This document shows, in pieces, positions 201-19,442 of a stretch of 19,442 bases of DNA; position 1 is the first letter of the stretch, and each line of letters starts with the position of its first letter. The DNA lies in assembly GCA_003990745.1 (NCBI GenBank), contig RBNI01002163.1:1-19442 (forward strand). The letters are read 5' to 3'. Source of the DNA: Jimgerdemannia flammicorona. Taxonomy: Eukaryota > Mucoromycota > Endogonomycetes > Endogonales > Endogonaceae. The translations under genes and the position numbers were made by a program. The notes beneath the pieces were generated by a model. It did not search any database. It was not told the origin of the DNA and worked only from the letters and a program-made list of their open reading frames with translations.

Positions 201-2193
201 TGGAAGCTGGTTCTTGCTGTGGGATTGGAACTCAGCCCGTGTTAGACCTGGTGGTTCTCAGCAATTTGTTTCAGACTCCAGCTGGTGTCAGTTGCAAGAA
301 CTGCAGGAGAGGGACTTCCATCTTGGCTTCTTGAATCTTCTACCAGACTTCATTGTAAATATCTCTAGGCATGGTCTTTGGAGTATACTTCTTCTTAGGC
401 TTTGGAGCAGCAGGTTCCCATTCTTCTTGTTCCATTTCTTCATCTTCTGGTGGTAACTCATTTGTCTTAGGAATAAAAGGTGAGGGGGTTCAGGGAGATG
501 TTTCTACTTGTTCCTCCTCATGTTCTTCATCTTCTTCTTAGATAATTCTTCTGCTGATATTCCTAAATGGCCTTCCTACAGGTCTCTTCCTCTTTTCTGC
601 TGGGTAGACTGTCTTTTGGGTGGTAACCTTAGTAGGGTATAAGTCTAGATCACTGTAGTCTTCACTGTTGCTTGCTTTCTCAAAATCTTCAACAGGATGG
701 GCTTCAGTCTTCTTGTACTGGGTGTCATTCCTTCAGTTTGGTGGTTCAGAGTCTCTTCGGTCACTTCTTTTATTGTCACATTCAGTGGCATAGTGTCTGA
801 ATTGTCTATAGTAGAAGTATTGGACTTGAGCTCTATCTCAGACAGGGTACCTTCTTTCTTCCTGCTGGTAATTTCTATTATCTCTTGGTGGATAACCTTG
901 GCTCCTCTGTGGTGGGTATCCTCTGTTGTCTTGGTAGGCCCGATTCTCATATGTGGTGAGTTTTTCAATCTGTCCAACCAATCAGTCTAACTTGGAGCTG
1001 AGATCTTGGATTTTGCTTCTGTCCTTTTTTCCTTCCTTGGCTGGCCTTCTTTCTTCAGATCTTTCTTGTCCTTGAAGGAGTTCTTGTAGAGCTTTAACCA
1101 GGATGTCTTCTTTATCTTCTTTCTTATCATGATCACTCCAAGTAGTTTCTTGTCTGACATCAAAGAATCCTTAGGCTGCATCTACTTGCTCTTCAGACCT
1201 TCTGATGCCTAGGGTGCAGATATACTGGGCAATGTTTGGGGGAATTCCATTCATAAAGGTCATTGGGCCTATAATGTCCTGGTTGGTGGCATTGAATCCA
1301 GCAGCATACATTCTCTTCTGAATTCTTGTGAAGAAGGCTCTGGGTGATTCTTTAAGATTCATCTTCATTCCCATAATAGATTTCTGAGCCTTATGGTGGG
1401 TTTCATTTCCTGCATACTTTTCAATGAGCTAGTGGACCATGGCCTCATATTCTAGCTCATTGGACATTGCTGCTTGTATCTGTCTTGCCAGTTCTGAGTC
1501 TGAGTTATTTGCTGTTTGATAGAAAATTCCTCTGGCTGGTTCTCTGAGCTGAGCCTTGTAGATGGTGATTTTTCTTTCATCTGAGAGATTCCTCAAGGCT
1601 ACAATTCCTTCAATTCCATCAAAGAATTCTCTGGGGTCTTCCTCTGGGTATCTTGCAAAGATTGGCAGTGAAGTGGCCATTTCTTTGTCACTTTCTTCTA
1701 ATTCTGGTTCAGGTTCAGATTCTGGTTCTGATTTGCTTTCTGAGCTGTCACTGAAGATGGGGGTGCTTGGATATCTTGAGGATGGTGTTCTGGATCTTGG
1801 ACAAAGTGGAATGAGTCTAGGTATTCTTATAGGAGCTACTTTCAATTCTGCAAGAGGTTATGGTAGAAGTTCTATTGGTGAGATTGGTGAGACTGGTATG
1901 GGGTGTCTGGCTGTAAGGTCTTGGGTTTATATAATAAAATCTTCTAGTTCTTGTGCAAGTTCTTCAAAATCTCTAGTAGGGCTGCCTATATTGTCTGATT
2001 GATCTGGTTGGGGATTTCACACTGTACTGCCTTCTGGTTCTGGTTGGGATCCTTCTGATGCTGGGTAATTGGCAAGTCTTGAAGTAATTACTTCTCTTCC
2101 TGTCCAGATGCTGGTGATAACTGGTTCTCCTATAGTAGTAGAGGTTGGTATTGTATCAAATGTATCCAGTTTGACTGTGGGTTCTTGTGAGCT
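201..2193 (-). pseudogene. gag: gag polyprotein, degenerate, with zinc-knuckle relic
   Basis: One minus-strand frame runs from about 2193 to the protease. It is open at 1845-1429 and 1374-1171, with isolated stops elsewhere. The N-terminal part is Pro/Ser-rich and acidic (a Glu/Ser tract near 1740-1690). It is followed by a capsid-like helical segment (1680-1170), where the phrases 'RYPEEDPREFFDGIEGI' and 'ELEYEAMVH' are typical of retrotransposon gag. A Lys/Glu-rich linker leads to a nucleocapsid knuckle at 819-778 with exact C-x2-C-x4-H-x4-C spacing. The His and last Cys remain, but the first two cysteines have become tyrosines (TAC at 817-819, TAT at 808-810). An acidic, Pro-rich linker (about 560-400) then leads to the protease. 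No in-frame ATG is left near the expected start; an ATG at 2203 is in another frame and hits a stop after three codons. Confidence 0.8.
778..819 (-). other. CCHC zinc knuckle with two Cys-to-Tyr changes
   Basis: The spacing of the retroviral nucleocapsid knuckle is kept exactly (positions 1, 4, 9 and 14), as are the histidine and the final cysteine (778-780). The first two ligands are tyrosine codons (817-819 and 808-810), each one G-to-A step from cysteine. The knuckle would bind RNA in a working gag; this one cannot hold zinc. Confidence 0.6.
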
Positions 2194-4599: not shown

Positions 4600-4975
4600 T
4601 ATTTTGTTCCAGTCTTTATTATTATTCTTATAGTTAATCCTTTTAGATTACTAGTCTTGGCTTGTGAAAATTTTCTTATGATATTTTTCTGTATTCACTT
4701 ATTTTATCCTAGCAATTAGTATCTTATAGTATAGTGGGTAGTAGATTAACCTTGGAACTATGAGTTAGAGGTTCAACTTTTCCAAATTCAACATATTATA
4801 TATATTCTTTAGCCCACATTGTCTGGACCTATTATATTCATTCATTCTTCTTAGACTAAGAGATATAAGTAATATATCAGTAGTACTCCAAATGAGGCAA
4901 TTCAAATCAGATTCAGATTCAATTCATCACATGATGGTTTGATCTGAATCTCAAATCTGAAGCCATTCAAATCAC
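4600..4975. other. A+T-rich stretch with imperfect palindrome
   Basis: No coding frame is recognised. It holds a tRNA-like stretch (4720-4790). Near 4890-4980 there is an imperfect inverted repeat built from ATGAGG...ATTCAGATTCAA on the left and TTTGATCTGAAT...ACCTCAT on the right, around ATCACATGATGG. The same CTGAAT/CAAAT words lead directly into the minisatellite. Confidence 0.5.
4720..4790 (+). repeat. tRNA-like sequence (possible SINE head or tRNA relic)
   Basis: TAGTATAGTGG (4727-4737) fits the pol III A-box consensus at every fixed position, and GGTTCAACTTT (4770-4780) resembles a B box. T8 and T54 are 45 bases apart. The T stem pairs partly through G-T wobbles (AGAGG with TTTCC), consistent with a C-to-T-decayed stem. 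The acceptor stem does not pair well, so this is at most a relic. Confidence 0.35.
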
Positions 4976-5224
4976 CTCATCTGAATTATCTCATCCAAAC
5001 TACTCAATCTGAATCACTTAATCTGAATTACTCAATCCAAATTACTCAATCTGAATCACTCAATCCAAATCACTCAATCTGAATCACTCAATCCAAATCA
5101 TTCAATCTGAATCCTTCAATTTGAATCCTTCAATTCAAATCCTCCAATTCAAATCCTTCAATCTGAATCCTTATCTGAATCCTTTAACCAAATCCTTTAA
5201 TCTAAATTCTCCAATCTGAATTCT
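4976..5224. repeat. 14-bp minisatellite with 28-bp alternation
   Basis: The unit TCAATCTGAATCAC recurs with a strict 14-base step at 5004, 5018, 5032, 5046, 5060, 5074, 5088 and 5102, then degenerates (CCTTCAAT...) to about 5224. Over part of the array TCAATCTGAATCAC and TCAATCCAAATCAC alternate, so the working repeat is 28 bp. Confidence 0.9.
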
Positions 5225-8029: not shown

Positions 8030-8600
8030 CCCAAGTGGGGCAGTGGTCAGTAGGATTGGTAGCAGTAGAGAGAGTATGTAAAATTTGTGGCTCTCTGCCA
8101 GCAGCAAGGGCAGCCCCAAGCTGTCAGTACCTGGGTCAGTAGGCAGGGTCAGTGGATATGGGGTTGGCAGAGGAAGTATACAAAATTTGCAGCCCTCTAC
8201 TAGCAGCAAGGAGCAGTCTTAAGCTATAAGTATCTGAGATGGGAGGGTAGGCAGAGGGGGCAGAATAGGTGGAGGGAGCACACAAAATTTGCAGCCCTCT
8301 GCTAGTAGCAAGAGGCAGCTCCAAGCTGTCAGTACTTGGGTCAGTGGGTGTGGGGTCAGCAGAGAAAGTATGTAAAATTTGTGGCTCTCTACTAGCAGTA
8401 AGGGGTAGCCCCAAGCCACAAGTGTCCAGGATAGAGGGGTTGGCAGAGAGAGTGCACAAATTTGCAGCCCTCTGCTAGCTGTGTAGAGTACCCCCAAGCA
8501 GCCTGTATCTGGGCTAGGGGTCAGCAGGGTTAGTAGAGAGAGCATGCAAAATTTATGGCTCTCCACCAGTAGTATAGGGGCAACTCCAAGCTACCAAGGA
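8030..8600. repeat. Minisatellite of about 82-104-bp units, six copies
   Basis: The phrase AAAATTTG(C/T)(A/G)GC(C/T)CTCT recurs near 8078, 8179, 8283, 8373, 8455 and 8547. Each copy is followed by an AGCAG(C/T)AAGG-type word, then CCCAAGC and a TGTCAGTACCTGGG-type phrase. Spacing varies from about 82 to 104 bases because of small indels. Minus-strand frames are open across the array simply because the unit has few stops; the unit length is not a multiple of three and I see no protein family. Confidence 0.85.
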
Positions 8601-8616
8601 GTCTAAGTCCAGATTG

Positions 8617-8716
8617 GAGAGTACTTCTGGTGGTCAGAGAGTACTTCTAGTAGTTGGAGGGTACTTCCAGTGGTCAGAGGGTATTTCTGGTAGTTGGAGG
8701 ATACTTCTAGTAATTG
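8617..8716. repeat. 20-bp tandem repeat, five exact-length units
   Basis: Units start at 8617, 8637, 8657, 8677 and 8697. Each is a variant of GAGGGTACTTCTGGTGGTCA. Units ending GGTCA and units ending GTTG alternate, so pairs form a 40-bp higher-order repeat. The array lies directly upstream of the unrecognised decayed frame. Confidence 0.95.
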
Positions 8717-9596
8717 AAGTCTATCACAGATTTAGACTCTATCACTAGTTTAGATCTCATAGGCACTCTGGCCCTATGCCACAGTATTGTACCAGCAGTA
8801 CTACAGAGTAGGGCCAAGGGGCTGATAGGGTCCAGCATAATGGTTAAACTAGTGCTACAGAAGAGATACCTGGCTGCCAGCCCAACTCTCCACAAAAGAC
8901 TGCCCAATCTATATAAAATAACTATCCAACCCTCATAAAAGATTGCCTAACTCTCACAAAAACTGCTCCACCTACTGGTCTCAGGCCTTGATGAGCCTGT
9001 TATCTATTGTGAGTATGATGACCATTGTATCCAAACTCTCCTCGAAGGTGACAGTGCTATAGTGGTTATGTGGTTAGAATAGGATGACTATATTGGCCAT
9101 AAATAAGACCCTGAAACCATAGGTGAGGTCATACCAGACTCCACTACTATCCTCCCAGATTGGGCCCTTCCTTTCTGAGATATAAAATATTACCAGAGTG
9201 ACATTATTGTCTATATATGTGAGTAGAGAAATATTGTACCTGATATATGTATTCTAATGTAATATAAGTATATAGTTAGCTGAACCCTTGACCCAGAACC
9301 TCATACTGTTAAGCTATACTGATGGATGTCTGCCCTTAGTCTAGTCCCAGGAGCCCCAGCTTAGCAATCTGTCAAAACAGATAGCATCCGGTCAGGGGCA
9401 GAAACCCTCCAGACTACAGAAACCCCCTGGGCTGCAGCATCAAAAAATAGAGCTCCTCACCTCATATGGTATGCTAAATTGCACCAAGAATATATATACA
9501 GCCATGCTGAGATCACCATCAAGCTGGTCTATCATATACTCTATCAATCTGCTTAAAGAACTCCAGATCATAGCTGCTATCACTACATAGACCATG
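8717..9596 (+). pseudogene. Unrecognised decayed coding frame (about 290 codons)
   Basis: One plus-strand frame can be followed from about 8717 to the poly-T tract without a frameshift, broken by roughly ten in-frame stops. The composition looks protein-like: 'EPVIYCEYDDHCIQTLLEGD' near 8990-9050, an Asp/Pro-rich middle and 'ETLQTTETPWAAASKNRAPH' near 9400-9460. Many of the stops could have arisen from CAA, CAG, CGA or TGG by one transition. I do not recognise a family. It may be the remains of a transposon protein or host gene, cut at 9597 by the poly-T tail of a LINE insertion. The near-absence of indels is the main reason to think it was once coding. Confidence 0.35.
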
Positions 9597-11233: not shown

Positions 11234-13213
11234 CTATTGTAACTGGTAAGGTAGCAGAGAAAGGGGCTGGCAACCTCTCTCTCTATCCAGCCTCCTCACC
11301 ACATCCAGCTGGACCTCTACCACTATCCAAAAGTCCTCCAGAACCTCACACTCTCTCAGCCAATGTTCTGGCATTTGCACAAATCCCCCAACCTGCTCTA
11401 CATTATAACACTCCTCACAATCTAATTGGCCACCATCCACCAGATGCCCAGTATGGAAATTCAACATAATATTCCTCTGCAGCATCTGTTACCAAACTAC
11501 TCAGAACTTGAGAGGAAGTCACCTCCACACTTCAGCACTCTATGACCAGACTCTGGCCCAGTCCCACTCCTTGCCAATCCTCACCACCTGCCAACTACTT
11601 GGCTAAAGATCCTGGCCAAGTCCCTGCTGACACTCTACTCTCTCACTAATATCAAACTCAGTAAGCAGAATATCCCCCAGAAGTAGTCTGTCCCATCACC
11701 ACATAGCTGGACCCCATAGTACCTCTCTCTCATTGCCTTGCCAGTACAGATCTATCCAGTGTACACCATCCACCACTCTCCACCAGAAATCCTTATACCA
11801 TAGCTGTTGGCTTTTATTCAGATCCACCAGAGAGAGCAAATCTCCTGAGGACCCTTAAGGGGAAAATCTCATCTCCCACACCTTCTGCATCAGCAGTACC
11901 CAACCTCCTCCCTGTAGTTCAACAGTCCTTTTCAATCACCAAGCTTGCAGATAATACAGCCACTTAGGAAAATCTACAAGACCTAGTCCTCCTCTAACCA
12001 CTAGCGATACAAGAGTATCCCAACTGATCTGGGACCTCCTCTCTGCCCAAATCTAATCTCTAGCCAGTTTCATCAGTCTCTTCACCACCCAAGCTAGGAA
12101 GTCCAAGTGATAGGCCACATACCATAGCTTGGGGAACCAGTAGACATTCAGAATTGACACCTGCCCTGTCAGAGAGATGTGGTGACCTTCCCAACCTCTA
12201 AGAGCCTCCCCCCAAATAGCCACCCTCCTCTCCCACTACACCCATGGCAAGACAGATCCATATATAGAAAGGAAGATATCCAGATACTGCACCACCTCTC
12301 CTGTAGGGACAATTGTTCCAATGACATCCCCTCCTACTAGCCCATTTATTAACACCATTGTCTCACACTTATGCTAGTTGAGTTTCACCCCAGAGTATAC
12401 CTTATACCATTCCACTGTCTTCTTAAGTGCCTCAACATCTGCTACTGATCCAAGTCCAACTACCATATCATCTACAAAGGCCCCCACCTTCTACACTATA
12501 CCATACATAGAGAGCCCTGCCACTTTCTATCATATCCTATCCATTAAAGGTTCCAATGAAAGGGTATAAAGGAAGAAGACAGTGGGTCTTCCTGAGGAAC
12601 TCCTCTTCTCAAGAGAAATGCCAACCCCCAGTGACCATTATACATCAGTGCTGCCCTACTGCCCTCCAACAGATTCAATATAAAAGTCTGAAAATGTGGA
12701 GAAACACTAATTCTATCCAGCACCTTGCCCAGCCATACTCACTGAACATGGTCATAGGCCTTCTTCTTGTTCAAAAAGACCAGTCTACCATCTAGTCTAC
12801 AAGCCTGAGCCCCTTCAATAACACTGTGCACTCAGGCAGTCTCATCTCTGATAAGCCTGCCTCCTACAAAGCCCCACTGCTCCTCACCCAGCACCTGTTG
12901 GGCCACCTTCTGAAGTCTTGCAACAATCACCTTAGTCACTATCTTCCTGTCCATATCCAGAAGCATGATCAGCCTCCAGTTCTTTCAGTCCTCCTGCCTC
13001 TCCTTGTCTTTATACAATAAGGCCACCAGCCTCAAGTTCTGCTCTCTAACCTACTTACCATTCAGAAGAACATGGTCACAGAGAGCAGCCATCTCTCCTA
13101 ACACTCTAGGGACCCTCACTATCTTCTTCCAGAAGTCCCAAGGTAACCCATCCTCTCCTGGTGCTGTCCCAAGTATAAGAGGGTTGCTTTTTAGGGTAAC
13201 CATTACATAGTTC
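11234..13213 (-). pseudogene. LINE reverse transcriptase (ORF2), 5'-truncated and broken
   Basis: The enzyme would copy LINE RNA into the genome at a nicked target. Visible blocks, in order: 'APGEDGLPWDFW' (13164-13129), 'NWRLIMLLDMDRKI' (about 12980-12940), 'QWGFVGGRLIRDE' (about 12875-12838), a 'KKKAYDHV' block (about 12775) and 'RGVPQEDPLSSSF' (12606-12568). The catalytic 'AFVDD' follows at 12481-12467, then a 'VQYLDIFLSIYGS' block and 'GGLGLVDFPKW' (about 11980). The zinc-finger-like tail (about 11530-11390) has Cys-x2-Cys ('CEEC') followed by His and Cys ('EHWLREC'). There is one frameshift near 12555 and several TAG/TGA stops. Both aspartates of the FVDD motif survive. The 5' end is cut at 13213/13214 by a chromovirus LTR. 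Confidence 0.85.
13209..13213. other. Candidate target-site duplication next to LTR B
   Basis: AGTTC lies directly outside the TG edge of LTR B (TGGAAGGG from 13214). Gypsy elements duplicate about 5 bp. The matching copy would lie beyond the 5' LTR, outside the window. Confidence 0.35.
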
Positions 13214-15245
13214 TGGAAGGGTTTTTCTAGAAGTTCTGGATATTCTGGAAGACCGTTTTCTTATGGTCAAGATCAATTTCATATGGAGTATGTCCTTTAT
13301 GCTTATTGATTTCAAGATCAGGTTGATGTCTCAACCAAAGTCCTTTCTCGGACTAGTTCTGGATGTTCAGGATTTTCAGTATTTCAGGAAGTTCAAGAAA
13401 CTAAGACCAGCTTAGTTGAATTGGCATATCGCTGCAGACAATACCTAATTAGGAAATTTCATGATGGGGTTAGAAGTGAGACCTAATGGGGAGTGGATTT
13501 ACTTAAGAGTGGTTTATGGGTTATTAAATAGGTTTATTTGCTATTTATGATGTTGCTATACTAGGAATAGTTGTGTAAAGGAATATTGTGAAGAAGTACT
13601 CAGGAGTTGTGTTCAGATTGTTCAGATCTGTTCAAGTCTGAGATTCTGAGGTCTGGGGGAGGGAGTATTTATACTAGTGAGGGGCTATCTGGACTATGCT
13701 AGATATGGATGTAGCACTAAGTACTTTGCTGAGTCAGAATGCAGTCACATAGTACAATAGTGATCTGACATATCAAGAGATTGTCTGACTGCTGAGTCAG
13801 TTCACAGTCATGTCATATAAGGCTAACCTAACTATACTATGACTGTTAAGCTATTTGTAGGTTTAGGCACTGTCTAGATAGTCTTCGATGACATCACCAT
13901 CAATTGCTTCATCTCTGATAAAGTAGTCATCTAAGAAGAGTGATTTGCGGATTACTTCTCCTTGTTAACTGAGGTAATAATACATTGGGACTTCATCTCC
14001 ATCCCACAGGATAGCATCATCTGTTTCATATACTGGATAGGGTATTGGTGGGCGAAGGAGAGGTGCATTGTTTTCACTTTCATCGGATTCGCTATCTGCA
14101 TACCTTCTATAGATTACAGCACTATGAGTCATGGGGTTGTAGTAAGCTGATGGCTGTAGTTCATATCGCTCATACTCAGGTGGTGGAGTTGTTGGTTCAA
14201 TCTCAAGGGTTGTCTGAAGGTACAGGTTGTATTCTCTAGTCTCTTCATTATAGTTAAAGTAATCGGAGGTGAATGTAGGTTGGTATTCGTACCAGTGGTC
14301 ATTGTCCCAGTAAGTCTTGTATGTGGTTATGAACTGTTGTAAGTTCATTAGCAAGGTTGGCAGTATGATCAGGGTTGGTAGAGATCCTTGGCTTGAGGTC
14401 ATGTTGGCATCAGAGGGATCATTGTCTTTTGCTTCATCTTCGTTGAAGTTGATTATATCATAGACATCCTTCATGGCATATCCAACTTGGGGCATTTGCA
14501 GGATGTGGTCATCGGAGTGCGGGAAGGTTCTGTCAGTAGTCTGAATGTATTCAAGATACTTGTGGTTGAGTTCTTGTATCATATCATCGATTTGGCCATA
14601 GGACAGGGTAGCAACCATTTCGCTGATAGTAACTTGGAGGTGGGGAATAAAGGTGCTGTACTCATAGAAGAGTTCTCGGTGTTTGTGGGTGATGAGCTTC
14701 TGGTGTTGAGACATCTGAATAATGTCTGTATCATGGTAGTGTTCGACCATGTCTTCCAGGAGGCGGCTGATCTGGTAGTAGCTTGAGATTTGTCCAATCT
14801 GATGGGCCTCATTAAGCATGTTCAGGGTATTCCATCAGGCTTTCACAAAATAGAGGGGTGCTAGGCTATGGATATTCATGAGGAGCAAAGAGGGTGTGGC
14901 TTGGTTAACAATGGCATTCCAAATGTTAGTGCAGATATGGTTGTAGATCTCGGTGGTCATGTTTGTGTGTTTGGAAGTTGTGGTTATTATTTGTTTTGGT
15001 TTTGTTTCAACATGTCTCAGGGCTTGGTATATATATATCTGTTCTTGATTGGTAAGATTCCGTTTGTGTGAACCTTATGTTCTGTGACTTCATATTGACT
15101 CAGCTTGTGCACTGTGACTTCTGTTTGACTCAGCTTTATGATCGTGCAGATGATTTTCAGATTTGTTCAGAGGTCATATGCAATTTCAGTAGCTTGTTAA
15201 GAGAGTGACATGTGATTTCAGTGGCTTGGAGGTTGTGCACTTACA
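13214..15245 (-). repeat. 3' LTR of chromovirus B (2,032 bp), carries an ORF
   Basis: The 5' edge (TGTAAG at 15245-15240, minus) follows a polypurine tract directly; the 3' edge ends CCTTCCA at 13214. U3 holds two tandem copies of a roughly 32-bp unit (AAGC(C/T)ACTGAAAT..., near 15230-15165), two TGACTCA sites on the plus strand (15096-15102, 15126-15132), CCAAT (15052-15048) and a TATATATA run (about 15038-15029). The reading-frame relic follows (14960-13863), then two TGAGTCA sites (near 13729 and 13791), TATAAATA (13673-13666) and AATAAA (13538-13533). It matches the LTR at 17610-19442 throughout, in inverted orientation, but has lost most CpG dinucleotides. Confidence 0.85.
13863..14960 (-). 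pseudogene. LTR-encoded ORF, older copy (two stops, no indel)
   Basis: This is the counterpart of the intact 365-residue frame at 17866-18963. From ATG (14960-14958) to the final TAA (13865-13863) it is 1,098 bases, exactly the same length, with no frameshift. Two in-frame stops break it. One is TGA near 14836, where the young copy has CGA, a CpG decay. The other is TAA near 13964, where the young copy has GAA. Between them an open stretch of 284 codons (14819-13965) is about 85% identical to the young protein by eye count. Many differences are His/Tyr, Thr/Ile, Ala/Val or Pro/Leu, as C-to-T changes produce. I do not recognise the protein family. Confidence 0.8.
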
Positions 15246-15259
15246 ACTCTCCTCTTCTT
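15246..15259 (-). other. Polypurine tract of chromovirus B
   Basis: The minus strand reads AAGAAGAGGAGAGT directly before the LTR start TGTAAG. This is where plus-strand DNA synthesis would be primed, and it fixes the LTR's 5' edge independently of any alignment. Confidence 0.8.
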
Positions 15260-15669
15260 AGCTTTCGACATCCTCGTCAGGGTCTTCTAATTTTTTTCTA
15301 GTGTTGTTACACCATTTGGGAGATCAAAAGTCCGGTAAAGTCCATTTTTTCAGAAAGTGGCATGCTCATAGTACAGTTGCCTAATGCATTGGATTTATAC
15401 ATTAAAGGGTCATGTGTTCAATGCCATGCACCAGAGGTGATTCTAACATCATTCACTGCTGGAGAATTTCCTCTAAGGAATCTTCTTAAATGTCTACACC
15501 TCATTTCCCACCAGTGGTATGGGGAGAATAGGCTGGCTTTCAGTTTTGCTATTTTTTTAGAGGATCGGTATTCTTGACTTACTGGGTTCATGGTTTTGTT
15601 TGTAATAATTATAGTATTCAGGAGGGTATAATATATAGTATGAACTGATAGGTGCAGGATATTCAGATT
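15260..15669 (-). other. 3' untranslated stretch of chromovirus B
   Basis: The pol frame reaches a stop at 15670-15672. The frame beyond stays open for about 80 codons but shows no domain, so coding may continue further if that stop is a mutation. On the plus strand this stretch holds a tRNA-like sequence (15356-15435). Confidence 0.5.
15356..15435 (+). repeat. tRNA-like sequence antisense to chromovirus B
   Basis: TAGTACAGTTG (15369-15379) matches the pol III A box at every fixed position, and TGTTCAATGCC (15416-15426) resembles the B box. The two are about 48 bases apart. GTGGCATG (15356) and CATGCAC (15427-15433) could form an acceptor-like stem with one bulge, and CACCA follows. The anticodon arm is damaged. 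It is probably a tRNA relic or SINE head inserted in the retrotransposon. Confidence 0.4.
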
Positions 15670-15679
15670 TCAGTTGTTC

Positions 15680-15843
15680 AAGGAATCGTATTCCTGAACT
15701 AAGTTGGTAGTATTCTGGAGATTGGTCTTGAGTTCCCATATTGCATCATGGATTGGATAATCTTTCTATTTAATGAGATACTCAGGGTGGTTTTTGTGGC
15801 CATGTTTGTTGAGGATTTGTTCGACTTCATATTCTTCCTGATT
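15680..15843 (-). other. Chromodomain of chromovirus B integrase
   Basis: The minus-strand frame reads 'EEYEVEQILNKH', then 'HPEYLIK-stop-KDYP', 'AIWEL', and 'NLVQEYDSLN'. This is the order of a chromodomain: first strand, aromatic cage region, and C-terminal helix. The stop at 15768-15766 replaces the Trp of the cage region (TGG to TAG). Confidence 0.85.
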
Positions 15844-17604
15844 ATTAATAATGACAGGTGTAGGTGATTTTGTAGTTCAGTTCGGGAATAGTTCATCATC
15901 ATTGTTATTATATTGCTTGAGATGTTGGACATTGAAGACTGGGTGAATCTTAATGGTGTCCGGTAGTGCCAATTTGTAGGAGATTAGAGAGACTTGTGAA
16001 ATGACTTCAAATGGTCCAATGAACTTGCTGTTCAGCTTTGTAGATAGTCTGTGCTTGAGGTTGTCAACTCAGTATCCTCAGATGTCTAATAGAACTTTTT
16101 CTCCAATATCAAAGGTTTCTTCTCAGCGATATTGGTTAACATACTATGACTATTGTTCTTGAGCTCGCGATAAATTCTCAATTGCGATCTGGCTTAGATT
16201 ATGTATTCGAAGTAAGAATTCTTCAACAACTTCAACTGTAGAGAGTTCTTCAGTGGTTCGGATAAGTGTCAGAGGAGTGTTTGGGTTTTGTTCAGTATTG
16301 GCAAAGAATGGGGTCATTCTAAGAGAGGCTTGCTTGCTGTTGTTGTAGGCAAACTCGACTATAGTGAGGTGTTCATGCCAATCATCTTGTCTGTAGAAAA
16401 CATAGTTTCTTAGCATTTGTTCTAGAGTTCAGTTCATTCTTTTGGTTTGACCATCAGTTTCAGGGTGAAAGACTGTAGATAGTACAAGTTTTGTTCCAAG
16501 GTATACATGGAGGGCTTTCCAAAAATGGCTGGTGAATTTCAGGTCTCGGTTATTAACAATGATCTTAGGAAGACCATGATAGTGGAAGATATTGTCAAAC
16601 AAGAGTGTGGCTATGTCTGGTGCTGTTGCAGTGGTGGTGGTTGGTATGAAGTAAGCTTGTTTGCTGAGATAGTCCACAAAGACAACAATTGCATCTTTCC
16701 CATTCTTGGTTCAGGGTAGTTGTACAATGAGGTCCATAGAGATTTGTTCCCAATTAGTGGATGGTACTGGGATAGGGTGGAGTAGGCCAGGTTTTGCTAG
16801 TGTTGAGGACTTGTTCTGTTGGCAGGCATCACAGGAAGTGATGTAGGTCTTTAGCTGATCTGCCATGCAGGGCCAATAGAAGTTTCAGGAGATAACTTCA
16901 TAGCATTTATCAAATCCTAAGTATCCAGCTATAGGGGCATCATGACATTCAAATAGGATAGTCCTTCAGAGGTCTCAGTTGTTGGGAACATACAATCTAT
17001 CCTTGTAGTAGATAGCATTGTCCTTGAGTTGATATTGATGATACCAGGTATGCTTGTCAGTATCATCACTGTTCAGGATTTCTTGAAGTGCTTGAGCTTC
17101 CTTATCATCAGCACATGCTGTGATAATTTGTTCTATGATGGAGTTTGTGATCAGGGTGAGAGTTTAGATAACTTCTTCAATGGGTGGTCTGGAGATTGCA
17201 TTAGCAACAATGTTTTCCTTGCCAGGGCAGTACTGGATTTCATAGTCAAAGTTGGTGAGGACTTTCATCCATCTGGCTTGCTTCCGAGAAAGGGTAGCCT
17301 GGGTCTTGATGTTGACTAATGACTTATGGTCAGTCAATACAGTGAAGTGTGCTCCTTCTAGGTATGGTCGCCATTTAATCAGAGTGTCTATGATGGCTAA
17401 CATTTCCTTCTCATGAGTTGCGTAATTGATTTCGGCATCATTGAACTTGCAGGAGTAATAGGCCACAGGGTGTCTTTCTTGTATGAGTACTGCTCCAAGA
17501 GCTAGGTCAGAGGCATCAGTGGTAACTTTATATGATAGGGCAGGATTCGCCACTTGAAGTACTGGAGTGGTTATCAAGGTATCTTTCAATACTTGAAAGG
17601 CTGT

Positions 17605-17609
17605 ATCTT
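17605..17609. other. Candidate target-site duplication of chromovirus C
   Basis: ATCTT directly precedes the TGTAAG start of LTR C and lies inside the older copy's RNase H codons. The partner copy would be at the far end of the insertion, outside the window. Confidence 0.4.
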
Positions 17610-17686
17610 TGTAAGCGCACAACCCCCAAGCCACAGAAATCACATGCGACCTCTGAACAAATCTGGAAATCACCTGCAAGATCACG

Positions 17687-17748
17687 AAGCTGAGTCAAAC
17701 AGAAGTCACAGCACACAAAGCTGAGTCAATACGAAGTCACGGAACACA
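17687..17748 (+). promoter_or_regulatory. 31-bp tandem repeat with TGAGTCA (bZIP-type) sites
   Basis: Two units (17687-17717 and 17718-17748) each carry AAGCTGAGTCAA followed by GAAGTCAC. TGAGTCA (17691-17697, 17722-17728) is the AP-1/Gcn4-type half-site pair. It lies about 65-100 bases upstream of the first TATA. Both sites survive in the older LTR as TGACTCA on the plus strand. Binding is inferred from the motif only. Confidence 0.6.
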
Positions 17749-17771
17749 AGGTTCACACAAACGGAATCTTA

Positions 17772-17797
17772 CCAATCAAGAACAGATGCATATATAC
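17772..17797 (+). promoter_or_regulatory. Promoter 1: CCAAT and TATA upstream of the LTR ORF
   Basis: CCAAT at 17772-17776 and TATATA at 17791-17796 lie 69 bases before the ORF's ATG. The region between is C/A-rich (17820-17865), like many fungal 5' leaders, and the ATG has A at -3. Both boxes are kept in the older LTR. Confidence 0.55.
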
Positions 17798-17865
17798 TGA
17801 GCCCTAAGACACGTCGAAACAGAGAACCAAAACAAATAACAACCACAACTTCCAAACACACAAAC

Positions 17866-18963
17866 ATGACTACTGAGATCTACAACCGCATCTGCGCTGA
17901 CATTTGGAATGCCATTGTCAACCGAGCCATACCCCCTCTGCCCCTCATGAATATCTACAGCCAAGCACCTCTCTACTTCGTGGAAGCCCGATGGAATGCC
18001 CTGAACATGCTTAACGAGGCCCACCAGATTGGACAAATCTCAAGCTACTACCAGATCGGCCACCTCCTGGAAGACATGGTCGAACACCACCATGATACAG
18101 ACATTACCCAGATGTCTCAACACCAGAAGCTCATTGCCCGCAAACACCGAGAACTCTTTTACGAGTACAGCACCTTTATTCCCTGCCTCCAAGTTACTAC
18201 CAGCGAAATGGTTGCTACACTGTCCTATGGCCAAATCGACGACATGATACAAGAACTCAACCACAAGTATCTGGAGTACGTTGAAACCACAGACAGAACC
18301 TTCCTGCACCCCAATGACCACATCCTGCAAATGCCCCAAGTTGGATATGCCATGAAGGACGTCTATGATATAATCAACTTCGACAAAGACGAAGCAGAAG
18401 ACAATGACCCTTCTGACGCCGACATGACCTCAAGCCAAGGATCTCTCCCAACTCTGATCACACCGCCAACTCTGCCGATGAACTTACAACAGTTCATAAC
18501 CACATACGAGACTTATTGGGACAATGATCACTGGCACGAATACCAACCTGCATTCACCCTCGATTACTTCAACTACAATGAAGAGACCGGAGAACACAAC
18601 CTGTACCTTCAGATAACCCTCGAAATTGAACCAACCACTCCACCATCCGAGTACAAGCGACATGAACCACAACTGCCAGCATACTACAACCCCGCGACCC
18701 ATAGTGCTGTAACCTATAGAAGATACGCAGACAGCGAATCCGATGAAAACGAAGATGATGCACCACTTCTTTGCCCCCTAACACCTTATCCAGCATACGA
18801 GACAGATGATGCTATCCTGTGGGACGGAGATGAAGTCCCAATGTATTATTACCTCAGCGAACAAGGAGAAGTAATCTGCGAACCACTCTTCCTAGATGAC
18901 TACTTCATCAGAGATGATGTCATCGATGGTGATGTCATCGAAGACTACCCAGACAGCGCCTAA
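17866..18963 (+). CDS. LTR-encoded 365-residue protein of unknown function
   Basis: Intact frame wholly inside the chromovirus LTR. The ATG has a good context (AAACATG) and is the first in the C/A-rich leader after the TATA at 17791. The N-terminal half (about 1-165) looks helical and soluble ('NMLNEAHQIGQISSYYQ', 'HLLEDMVEHHHD'). Residues 165-245 include a Ser/Thr/Pro stretch and a Tyr/Trp-rich block ('YETYWDNDHWHEYQ'). The C-terminal third is Pro/Tyr-rich and then strongly acidic ('DSESDENEDDAP'; the last 30 residues are rich in Asp and Glu). There is no signal peptide, membrane segment, zinc knuckle or enzyme motif that I can see. It is not gag, pol or envelope by any motif. The older copy has the same length without indels. 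It could be an accessory factor expressed from U3, or a captured host gene. Function unknown. Confidence 0.8.
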   Translation: MTTEIYNRICADIWNAIVNRAIPPLPLMNIYSQAPLYFVEARWNALNMLNEAHQIGQISSYYQIGHLLEDMVEHHHDTDITQMSQHQKLIARKHRELFYEYSTFIPCLQVTTSEMVATLSYGQIDDMIQELNHKYLEYVETTDRTFLHPNDHILQMPQVGYAMKDVYDIINFDKDEAEDNDPSDADMTSSQGSLPTLITPPTLPMNLQQFITTYETYWDNDHWHEYQPAFTLDYFNYNEETGEHNLYLQITLEIEPTTPPSEYKRHEPQLPAYYNPATHSAVTYRRYADSESDENEDDAPLLCPLTPYPAYETDDAILWDGDEVPMYYYLSEQGEVICEPLFLDDYFIRDDVIDGDVIEDYPDSA

Positions 18964-19012
18964 AACTATAAATAGATTAGCAGTCATAGTATAGTTAGAT
19001 TAGCCTTGTACG

Positions 19013-19099
19013 ACGTGACTGTGAACTGACTCAGCAGTCAGACGATCTCTTGACATGTCAGATCACACTTGTACTACGTGACTGCATTCCGACTCAGCA
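19013..19099 (+). promoter_or_regulatory. 63-bp duplicated bZIP-type module upstream of promoter 2
   Basis: ACGTGAC (19013-19019, 19076-19082) followed by GACTCAGCA (19028-19036, 19091-19099) occurs twice with a 63-base step; the first copy has the full TGACTCAGCA. The palindrome TGACATGTCA (19051-19060) lies between. These resemble CREB/G-box-like and Gcn4/AP-1-like sites. In the older LTR the CpG-containing ACGTGAC words are mutated while the TGAGTCA words persist. Confidence 0.55.
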
Positions 19100-19152
19100 A
19101 AGCACTTAGTGCTACACCCATATTTAGCATAGTCCAGATAGCCCCTCACTAG

Positions 19153-19160
19153 TATAAATA
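19153..19160 (+). promoter_or_regulatory. Promoter 2: TATAAATA (likely genomic RNA start)
   Basis: TATAAATA lies about 120 bases before AATAAA and is kept in the older LTR (13673-13666). Its place downstream of the ORF, close to the poly(A) signal, fits the U3-R boundary, so full-length element RNA would start near 19180-19190. Confidence 0.6.
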
Positions 19161-19277
19161 CCCCCTCCCCCAGACCTCAGAATCTCAGACCTGAACAATC
19201 CGAACACAACTCCTGAGCACTTCCCCACAATACCCCTTCACACAACTACTCCTAGTATAGCAATATCATGAATAGCG

Positions 19278-19283
19278 AATAAA
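19278..19283 (+). terminator. AATAAA poly(A) signal of the LTR
   Basis: AATAAA about 315 bases after the ORF stop and 120 after the second TATA. It is kept in the older LTR (13538-13533). It would serve both the ORF mRNA and the 3' end of genomic RNA. Confidence 0.55.
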
Positions 19284-19442
19284 CCTATTTAATAACCCAC
19301 AAACCACTCTTAAGTAAATCCGCTCCCCGTTAGGTCCTACTCCTAACCCCATCACGAAATTTCCTAATTGGGTATTGTCTGCAGCGATACGCCAATTCAA
19401 CTAAGCTGGCCTTAGTTTCTTGAACTTCCTGAAATACGGAAA

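What the first reader, a model, noticed from the sequence alone, without database searches (positions are those of the whole stretch)
17610..19442. A chromovirus LTR that carries its own 365-codon gene
The frame at 17866-18963 lies entirely within the LTR. Two independent facts fix the LTR edge. The older copy begins at TGTAAG right after a polypurine tract (15259-15246). The younger copy begins at the same base against unrelated RNase H sequence. LTR-encoded accessory proteins are known from a few retroviruses, but I know of no standard chromovirus gene of this kind and the protein matches no family I recognise.
Basis: partly seen in the sequence, partly recalled or inferred. Interest (0 to 1): 0.85.

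Follow-up and report, generated by a model that had tools for sequence, protein, structure and literature searches.

The report
Conserved gene inside a retrotransposon LTR
A high-copy retrotransposon of a eukaryote (probably a fungus) carries a selected protein gene with promoter-like DNA of its own inside its long terminal repeats, a place where such elements normally hold only control DNA.

Summary
The 365-codon frame at 17866-18963 lies inside a real LTR. Two full-length elements of the same genome (C812, C602) have matching 5-bp target duplications, a PBS-like site, a purine tract and an ORF match in both LTRs (2,031 and 2,073 bp). The element is a chromovirus with a dUTPase.

The frame is a gene. 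In 25 copies picked by non-coding LTR DNA, variants shared by three or more copies fall 31:21:107 on codon positions 1:2:3. The nonsynonymous/synonymous ratio, relative to expectation, drops from 0.62 (singletons) to 0.08 (variants in six or more). LTR flanks show no phase. Selection acted mainly on lineages still spreading.

A conserved TATA-like box precedes the ORF. A 21-bp unit, GCTGAGTC-N7-AGTCAC, occurs twice before the ORF and twice, inverted, before a later TATA-like box. It has 4,079 exact genome matches; the reversed control has none.

The protein is acidic and matches no searched family; one relative was found (65%). I propose a U3-encoded accessory protein, perhaps regulatory; expression and biochemical role are unproven. 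New variant of a known kind.

The parts
17610..19442 (+). Younger LTR, starting TGTAAG; truncated by the window/contig end (2,031-2,073 bp in other copies). Inserted into the RNase H region of an older copy of the same family
17866..18963 (+). U3-encoded gene, 365 aa, acidic (pI 4.18), no known domain
17689..17709 (+). Bipartite unit GCTGAGTC-N7-AGTCAC, copy 1 (upstream of ORF)
17720..17740 (+). Bipartite unit, copy 2 (upstream of ORF)
17790..17797 (+). TATA-like box (ATATATAC) of the proposed ORF promoter P1; 96-100% identical in 46 copies, 94-100% in 16 older copies
   Evidence: promoter role inferred
18967..18974 (+). A further conserved TATAAATA just after the ORF stop; role unknown (a promoter or part of a 3' end signal)
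19015..19035 (-). Bipartite unit, copy 3 (inverted, upstream of the later TATA box)
19078..19098 (-). Bipartite unit, copy 4 (inverted, upstream of the later TATA box)
19153..19160 (+). TATA-like box (TATAAATA) of the proposed genomic-RNA promoter P2; invariant in 38 copies; would place the ORF in U3
   Evidence: promoter role inferred
13174..15245 (-). Older LTR with a decayed copy of the same gene (longest open piece 13965-14819); 88% nucleotide identity to the young ORF without indels
15246..15259 (-). Polypurine tract of the older element
15260..17609 (-). Older element: RNase H, integrase and chromodomain region, interrupted at 17609/17610 by the young LTR

Best explanation
A dUTPase-bearing chromovirus keeps a gene, with promoter-like DNA of its own, inside the U3 part of its LTR. 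SHOWN: the ORF lies in both LTRs of full-length elements and is a protein gene kept by purifying selection, most visibly in the lineages that spread. A conserved TATA-like box and two copies of a bipartite 21-bp unit precede it; the same unit, inverted and doubled, precedes a TATA-like box downstream of the ORF. INFERRED: the first box (P1) drives the accessory mRNA and the later one (P2) the genomic RNA, so both answer to whatever binds the unit. The ORF would lie at the 3' end of genomic RNA and be copied into both LTRs at each cycle, so solo LTRs could also express it. INFERRED, weaker: the acidic protein acts in trans on the element's expression (co-activator or anti-silencing). Likelihoods: real LTR gene under selection about 0.95; own promoter about 0.75; regulatory or anti-silencing role about 0.4.
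For: Two full-length elements with TSDs and an ORF match in both LTRs. Twenty-five ungapped copies chosen by non-coding DNA: phase counts 31:21:107 for shared variants; omega-like 0.62, 0.35, 0.27, 0.08 with rising allele count. The effect stays without CpG columns: shared 13 nonsynonymous to 51 synonymous, singletons 82 to 53. Flanks of 47 copies show no phase; pol of two copies gives a similar pattern.044/.035/.117. All 16 older copies fetched still match the ORF in the LTR, 15 of them well beyond the part used to find them. One relative outside this genome is 65% identical over 247 aa. Bipartite unit: 4,079 genome matches against 0 for the reversed pattern; fixed positions of the two forward units 0.90 identical, linkers 0.72, rest of flank 0.81 in the 16 older copies. 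pI 4.18, net charge -50 (sum of three segments), last 165 aa net -32 with 26 aromatic residues.
Against: No RNA or protein evidence was available. No domain is recognised, the structure model is useless (mean pLDDT 31), and acidic composition is a weak hint; a gag piece of the element is acidic too (pI 4.39). The unit's core TGAGTC(A) looks like a host bZIP (Gcn4/AP-1) site (recalled), so its binder may be a host factor. A third conserved TATAAATA lies just after the ORF stop, so the assignment of P2 is not unique. The two LTR copies of the ORF in C812 differ 19:8:27 by codon position, and singletons 61:39:78, not 1:1:1; so mutation bias, exchange between copies or some constraint after insertion also contributes. 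The better-populated pol control (six copies) shows only a weak phase. Only one relative is known.
Confidence: 0.55

Rival explanations
1. The protein is a structural or replication cofactor (for example packaged with Gag, or an env-like or nucleic-acid chaperone function) rather than a regulator.
For: Selection on spreading lineages fits any function needed for transposition. The N-terminal third is predicted mostly helical, at low confidence.
Against: No BLASTP similarity to the two gag pieces tested. No transmembrane-like stretch (best 19-residue hydropathy 0.89). The element already has a zinc knuckle, PR, RT, RH, IN and chromodomain.
Confidence: 0.25
2. The protein is a counter-defence factor that suppresses host silencing (RNAi, DNA methylation or repeat-directed mutation).
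For: The family is numerous: 3,911 first-look candidates, of which 112 were scored. Expression from LTRs, solo copies included, would suit a trans-acting suppressor. Accessory proteins of unknown family are typical of counter-defence (recalled).
Against: No direct evidence. Most shared and singleton changes are transitions, so copies are not evidently spared from deamination-type mutation.
Confidence: 0.22
3. A captured host gene carried as a passenger with no use to the element.
For: No similarity to any protein family searched; gene capture by LTR elements is common (recalled).
Against: Strong purifying selection among shared variants. Older copies keep the match, and a relative outside the genome stays open over 247 aa.
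Confidence: 0.04
4. The repeat is not an LTR, or the ORF belongs to a separate element nested in it.
For: Nested insertions are frequent (window, L033, L034). The inverted pairs of 21-bp units on either side of the ORF recall the ends of an inserted unit.
Against: PBS-like site, PPT, 5-bp TSDs and the ORF in both repeats of two full-length elements. The 47 aligned copies share the same flanks, though copies were required to span the ORF.
Confidence: 0.03
5. Copies are kept for the host's benefit (domestication).
For: C812 LTR-pair differences and singletons are not flat over codon positions.
Against: 18 of the 25 copies chosen by non-coding DNA carry stops, 34 in all, so most of these insertions are not maintained.
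Confidence: 0.03

Closest known systems
MMTV sag (LTR-encoded superantigen); lentiviral nef overlapping the 3' LTR (recalled)
   Same: Sense-strand gene in the U3 part of the LTR, copied into both LTRs (recalled). [quoted passage not shown]
   Different: Those are retroviruses of animals. Here it is a chromovirus, and the protein search returned only one relative, of unknown function. The ORF lies between two promoter-like regions with shared sites.
Foamy virus Tas (Bel1) with LTR and internal promoter
   Same: Two promoters of one element, proposed here to answer to one regulator. PMC8670036 and PMC4929722 (abstract starts seen in a listing) state that Tas acts on both the LTR and the internal promoter.
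   Different: Here binding by the ORF protein is not shown. In foamy viruses the internal promoter and tas lie outside U3 or only partly overlap it (recalled).
Additional ORFs of plant LTR retrotransposons (Grande gene23, Retand) and Retrosat2 ORF0
   Same: Extra genes of unknown role in gypsy elements; gene23 is reported to have its own promoter (PMC7264820 passages). Retrosat2 has long LTRs and an ORF0 (PMC3485330 passages).
   Different: ORF0 lies upstream of the gag-pol ORF and gene23 in the 3' internal region, antisense, according to those passages. Here the gene is sense and inside the LTR.
Botrytis Boty-like elements with antisense gene brtn
   Same: A fungal gypsy element with an additional gene (seen only as a reference title in PMC7264820).
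   Different: Antisense according to that title; its position was not read.
dUTPase-bearing fungal chromoviruses (Tmt1 of Tuber melanosporum, PosPlaTy3 of Postia)
   Same: Fungal gypsy elements with a dUTPase domain (PMC2864245, passages, section 5 read). [quoted passage not shown]
   Different: Section 5 says most full-length elements have one or two ORFs for Gag and Pol and mentions no gene in an LTR. The figure is not held, so the place of that additional ORF is unknown to me; the Tmt1 paper was not available.

Membership tests
Chromovirus (Ty3/gypsy with chromodomain) | RT, RNase H and integrase in gypsy order with a chromodomain after the integrase | tested here: met
   RVT_1, RT_RNaseH and Integrase_H2C2 in L031; rve, SH3_Tf2-1 and Chromo in L006. 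No RT tree was built
Chromovirus (Ty3/gypsy with chromodomain) | LTRs with TG..CA ends, PBS, PPT and 5-bp TSD | tested here: met
   C812 and C602; C165 shows no matching TSD. The PBS tRNA was not identified: one tRNA pattern search found nothing
LTR-encoded accessory gene (kind typified by MMTV sag) | ORF wholly inside the LTR, present in both LTRs of a full-length element | tested here: met
   C812 by DNA; C602 by protein matches to the last two thirds in both LTRs
LTR-encoded accessory gene (kind typified by MMTV sag) | Protein-coding selection | tested here: met
LTR-encoded accessory gene (kind typified by MMTV sag) | Expressed protein | not testable with these tools
   No RNA or peptide data
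Homolog of a known retroviral accessory protein or known domain | Profile match to a known family | tested here: not met
   Pfam, NCBIfam and PDB by sequence: none significant
Tas-like transactivator | Protein binds sites in both of the element's promoters and activates them | not testable with these tools
   Shared 21-bp units at both promoter-like regions are shown; the binder is unknown
Gag or pol of the same element | Sequence similarity to internal proteins | tested here: not met
   Best BLASTP E 2.6 and 7.2 for two gag pieces; no Pfam domain in the ORF. Pol pieces were not compared pairwise

The most novel reading that the evidence does not exclude
The LTR is a self-contained regulatory module. 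U3 encodes a transactivator or anti-silencer that works, directly or through a host bZIP-type factor, at the bipartite 21-bp units in front of both its own promoter and the genomic promoter. Each integration, and every solo LTR left behind, is then a free-standing gene for the element's own activation, so decay of full-length copies does not remove the trans-acting supply. This would be a foamy-virus-like two-promoter circuit, evolved separately inside the LTR of a chromovirus.
Probability: 0.2. Interest if true: 0.87.

Novelty: new variant of a known kind. Interest (0 to 1): 0.62.

Why it matters
LTRs are usually treated as control DNA and masked in annotation, so a selected gene inside one would be missed. 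Here it belongs to a high-copy family, and solo LTRs could keep expressing it. That makes the question of whether solo LTRs act in trans on their own family directly testable, and it offers a case of a retroviral-style LTR accessory gene in a chromovirus.

Tried and rejected
Structure prediction from two sequences gave no usable model (mean pLDDT 31), so no fold search was run. A profile search of 5.8 billion proteins found only the same relative. A viral-contig scan found none. A tRNA pattern for the PBS primer found nothing. Host identity: an alpha-tubulin locus whose coding pieces are split over frames points to a eukaryote; the fungal assignment is an inference from dUTPase chromoviruses described in fungi (PMC2864245) and was not tested. 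L033 and L034 first looked like short elements with both LTRs; their second LTR begins without a purine tract inside the internal region, so I read them as nested insertions. C165 was dropped as a full-length case because its flanks do not match. One search listed 40 places (the best of 2,934 first-look candidates, so the closest in non-coding sequence): 28 including the window were examined, 12 were not held, not fetched or cut by a contig end (L058 came back as 8 bases). Of the 28, L054, L070 and L071 have indels and were left out, leaving 25. Of the 40 main places, 16 were fetched. In the four-copy RNase H row two rows are the same sequence (window and L001), so I do not use it.

Literature. 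Those aimed at a gene inside an LTR were 16, 34, 59, 64 and 79; some were on dUTPase or Tuber elements, 76 on foamy virus. The exact-phrase search 64 found no paper; in the listings and passages that I saw of the others I met no gene inside the LTR of a chromovirus or fungal element. Several listings were cut (49: 10 of 56; 65: 10 of 36; 79: 10 of 18), and the library lacks most subscription journals, the Tmt1 paper included.

Full report
What was checked. The window is contig C2163 of an unnamed 134.8-Mb assembly. The frame 17866-18963 is open on the + strand. It lies in a repeat whose inverted partner occupies 15245-13174 on the - strand. Both start TGTAAG. The older copy follows AAGAAGAGGAGAGT, a polypurine tract at the end of a chromovirus pol region.

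It is an LTR. A natural full-length element on C812 has LTRs at L031:346-2376 (2,031 bp) and from L031:8619 into L036. They end CTTACA and are flanked on both outer sides by AGATA; the first is followed by ACTTGGTAGCAGCGG (PBS-like) and the second preceded by a purine tract. C602 has 2,073-bp LTRs flanked on both sides by GAGTT, with protein matches to the last two thirds of the ORF in both, each with one stop. A third spaced pair, C165, has unlike flanks and is not counted. In C812 the ORF of the 5' LTR has no stop; that of the 3' LTR has two.

The element. Pfam finds a zinc knuckle, dUTPase, aspartic protease, RT, RNase H and integrase in pieces of L031 and L032, and integrase core, Tf2-type SH3 and chromodomain in L006. 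It is a dUTPase-bearing chromovirus. In the window the young LTR sits inside the RNase H of a copy of the same family (91-92% to L031 and L032).

The gene is under selection. The first comparison used 47 aligned copies that came in by protein match: diversity at codon positions 1, 2, 3 was 0.056, 0.027 and 0.147. Because that sample could favour intact frames, copies were drawn again by the non-coding 3' LTR (40 places); 28 including the window were examined and 25 without indels were counted. Diversity was 0.052, 0.029 and 0.136. With a mutation spectrum taken from singletons in the non-coding LTR of the 47 copies, the nonsynonymous-plus-stop to synonymous ratio relative to expectation was 0.62 for singletons, 0.35 for doubletons, 0.27 for variants in 3-5 copies and 0.08 in 6 or more. 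Shared variants (3 or more) fall 31:21:107 over codon positions, chi-square p about 7e-19; singletons versus 6+ differ by Fisher test, p about 2e-9. Without CpG columns the shared class is 13 nonsynonymous to 51 synonymous and singletons 82 to 53. The 5' and 3' LTR flanks of the 47 copies show no phase (25:20:25 and 24:17:21). As a coding control, RT-RNase H-integrase of two copies gives .044/.035/.117; a six-copy integrase-chromodomain set gives only .064/.043/.077, but it was read in one phase through a stretch where L031's frame has stops, so it is a poor control. Results against a simple picture: the two LTR copies of the ORF in C812 differ 19:8:27 by position, and singletons 61:39:78, so they are not neutral in pattern. 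Seven of 25 copies, the window's among them, have no stop; the other 18 carry 34 stops, several at the same codons, such as TGA at codon 265 in 7 of 25.

History. Sixteen older copies, 77-87% identical to the young LTR over its first 391 bp, were drawn by DNA of a sister LTR. All 16 match the ORF inside the LTR (aa identity 65-85% in the pieces) and all carry stops. The probe itself reached about codon 75, so the start of the match is by construction; in 15 of 16 it extends to codon 126 or beyond, in the sixteenth to codon 86. One partial sister LTR (L083) gave no ORF match. Outside this genome one protein was found, 247 aa, 65% identical, matching residues 115-365, from a 998-base contig in ENA.

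Control DNA. The LTR holds four copies of GCTGAGTC-N7-AGTCAC: 17689 and 17720 forward, upstream of a TATA-like box at 17790-17797 and the ATG at 17866; and 19015 and 19078 inverted, between the ORF stop and TATAAATA at 19153-19160. Mononucleotide-shuffled LTRs average 0.04 GCTGAGTC sites, at most 1 in 2,000 shuffles, against 4 observed. The genome has 2,029 + 2,050 exact matches and the reversed pattern none; only the first places were listed, and whether all lie in LTRs was not checked. In the 47-copy alignment the P1 box is 96-100% and the P2 box 100% identical among copies that reach it; a third TATAAATA at 18967-18974, just after the stop, is 96-100% identical, so it may be the real downstream promoter or a 3' end signal. 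In the 16 older copies the fixed positions of the two forward units are 90% identical, their linkers 72%, the rest of the 5' flank 81%, and the P1 box 94-100%. In the 47 copies the outer AGTCAC base varies most among fixed positions of units 2 and 3 (83% and 73%).

The protein. 42.7 kDa, pI 4.18, no transmembrane-like stretch, the last 165 residues net -32 with 26 aromatic residues (the P0001 line of that call was computed on its gapped row and is not used). No Pfam or NCBIfam match; no significant PDB match (best profile hit SKA1 at E 0.18). AlphaFold2 from two sequences is not usable. No similarity to two gag pieces of the element.

Reading. The shown part is a selected gene inside the LTR with conserved promoter-like DNA on both sides. 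The inferred part is that it lies in U3, that two TATA boxes act as separate promoters under one factor, and that the protein helps the element in trans, most likely in expression or escape from silencing. The bold form is a foamy-virus-like circuit (Tas acts on LTR and internal promoter: abstract starts of PMC8670036 and PMC4929722 in the listing). The acidic protein without a recognisable DNA-binding part and the bZIP-like core of the unit (recalled) argue that any such action would go through a host factor.

Known ground. LTR-encoded genes are known in retroviruses (MMTV sag, PMC12548423 passages; nef recalled). Extra genes in gypsy retrotransposons are known, in the passages read internal (PMC7264820; PMC3485330). 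dUTPase chromoviruses are known in fungi, and the legend there lists an additional ORF whose place I could not see (PMC2864245 section 5). I met no gene inside a chromovirus LTR in the listings and passages seen; the searches are named under Tried and rejected and the library is partial. I rate it a new variant of a known kind.

Noticed in passing
L031:4431-4811 (between zinc knuckle and protease): A dUTPase domain (PF00692, E 1e-22) between the CCHC knuckle and the protease of the element.
   Followed up: partly
window 17609/17610; L033 about 1594; L034 about 5209: Insertion of the family into its own internal region, antisense in the window and sense in L033 and L034.
   Followed up: partly
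L015 about 1781; L009 about 1520; L042 about 825: LTR copies directly next to internal sequence only 80-85% like L031, that is, next to a sister family (for L042 the LTR end is inferred from its length).
   Followed up: partly
ORF codons 14, 42, 109, 265, 319 in several copies: The same stop positions recur among copies (codon 265 TGA in 7 of 25); CGA-to-TGA hot spots and a spreading defective lineage were not told apart.
   Followed up: no
window old LTR and C602 versus young LTR and C812: Two LTR length classes, 2,072-2,073 and 2,031 bp (the young one by its 5' flank only), differing by about 30 bp upstream of the ORF.
   Followed up: no
L082 and L083: Sister-family 3' ends, about 80-81% like L031 pol; one partial LTR keeps the ORF start (72% aa over 75 residues, with stops), the other shows no ORF match.
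   Followed up: partly
window 18967-18974: A conserved TATAAATA three bases after the ORF stop, of unknown role.
   Followed up: partly
window 4937-5174 and 8045-8720: Tandem 14-bp repeats and degenerate 20-bp and ~100-bp repeat arrays in the part of the window outside the element.
   Followed up: no
window 1429-1845 (-): A 138-codon frame that by eye resembles a gag fragment of another element; no Pfam match.
   Followed up: partly
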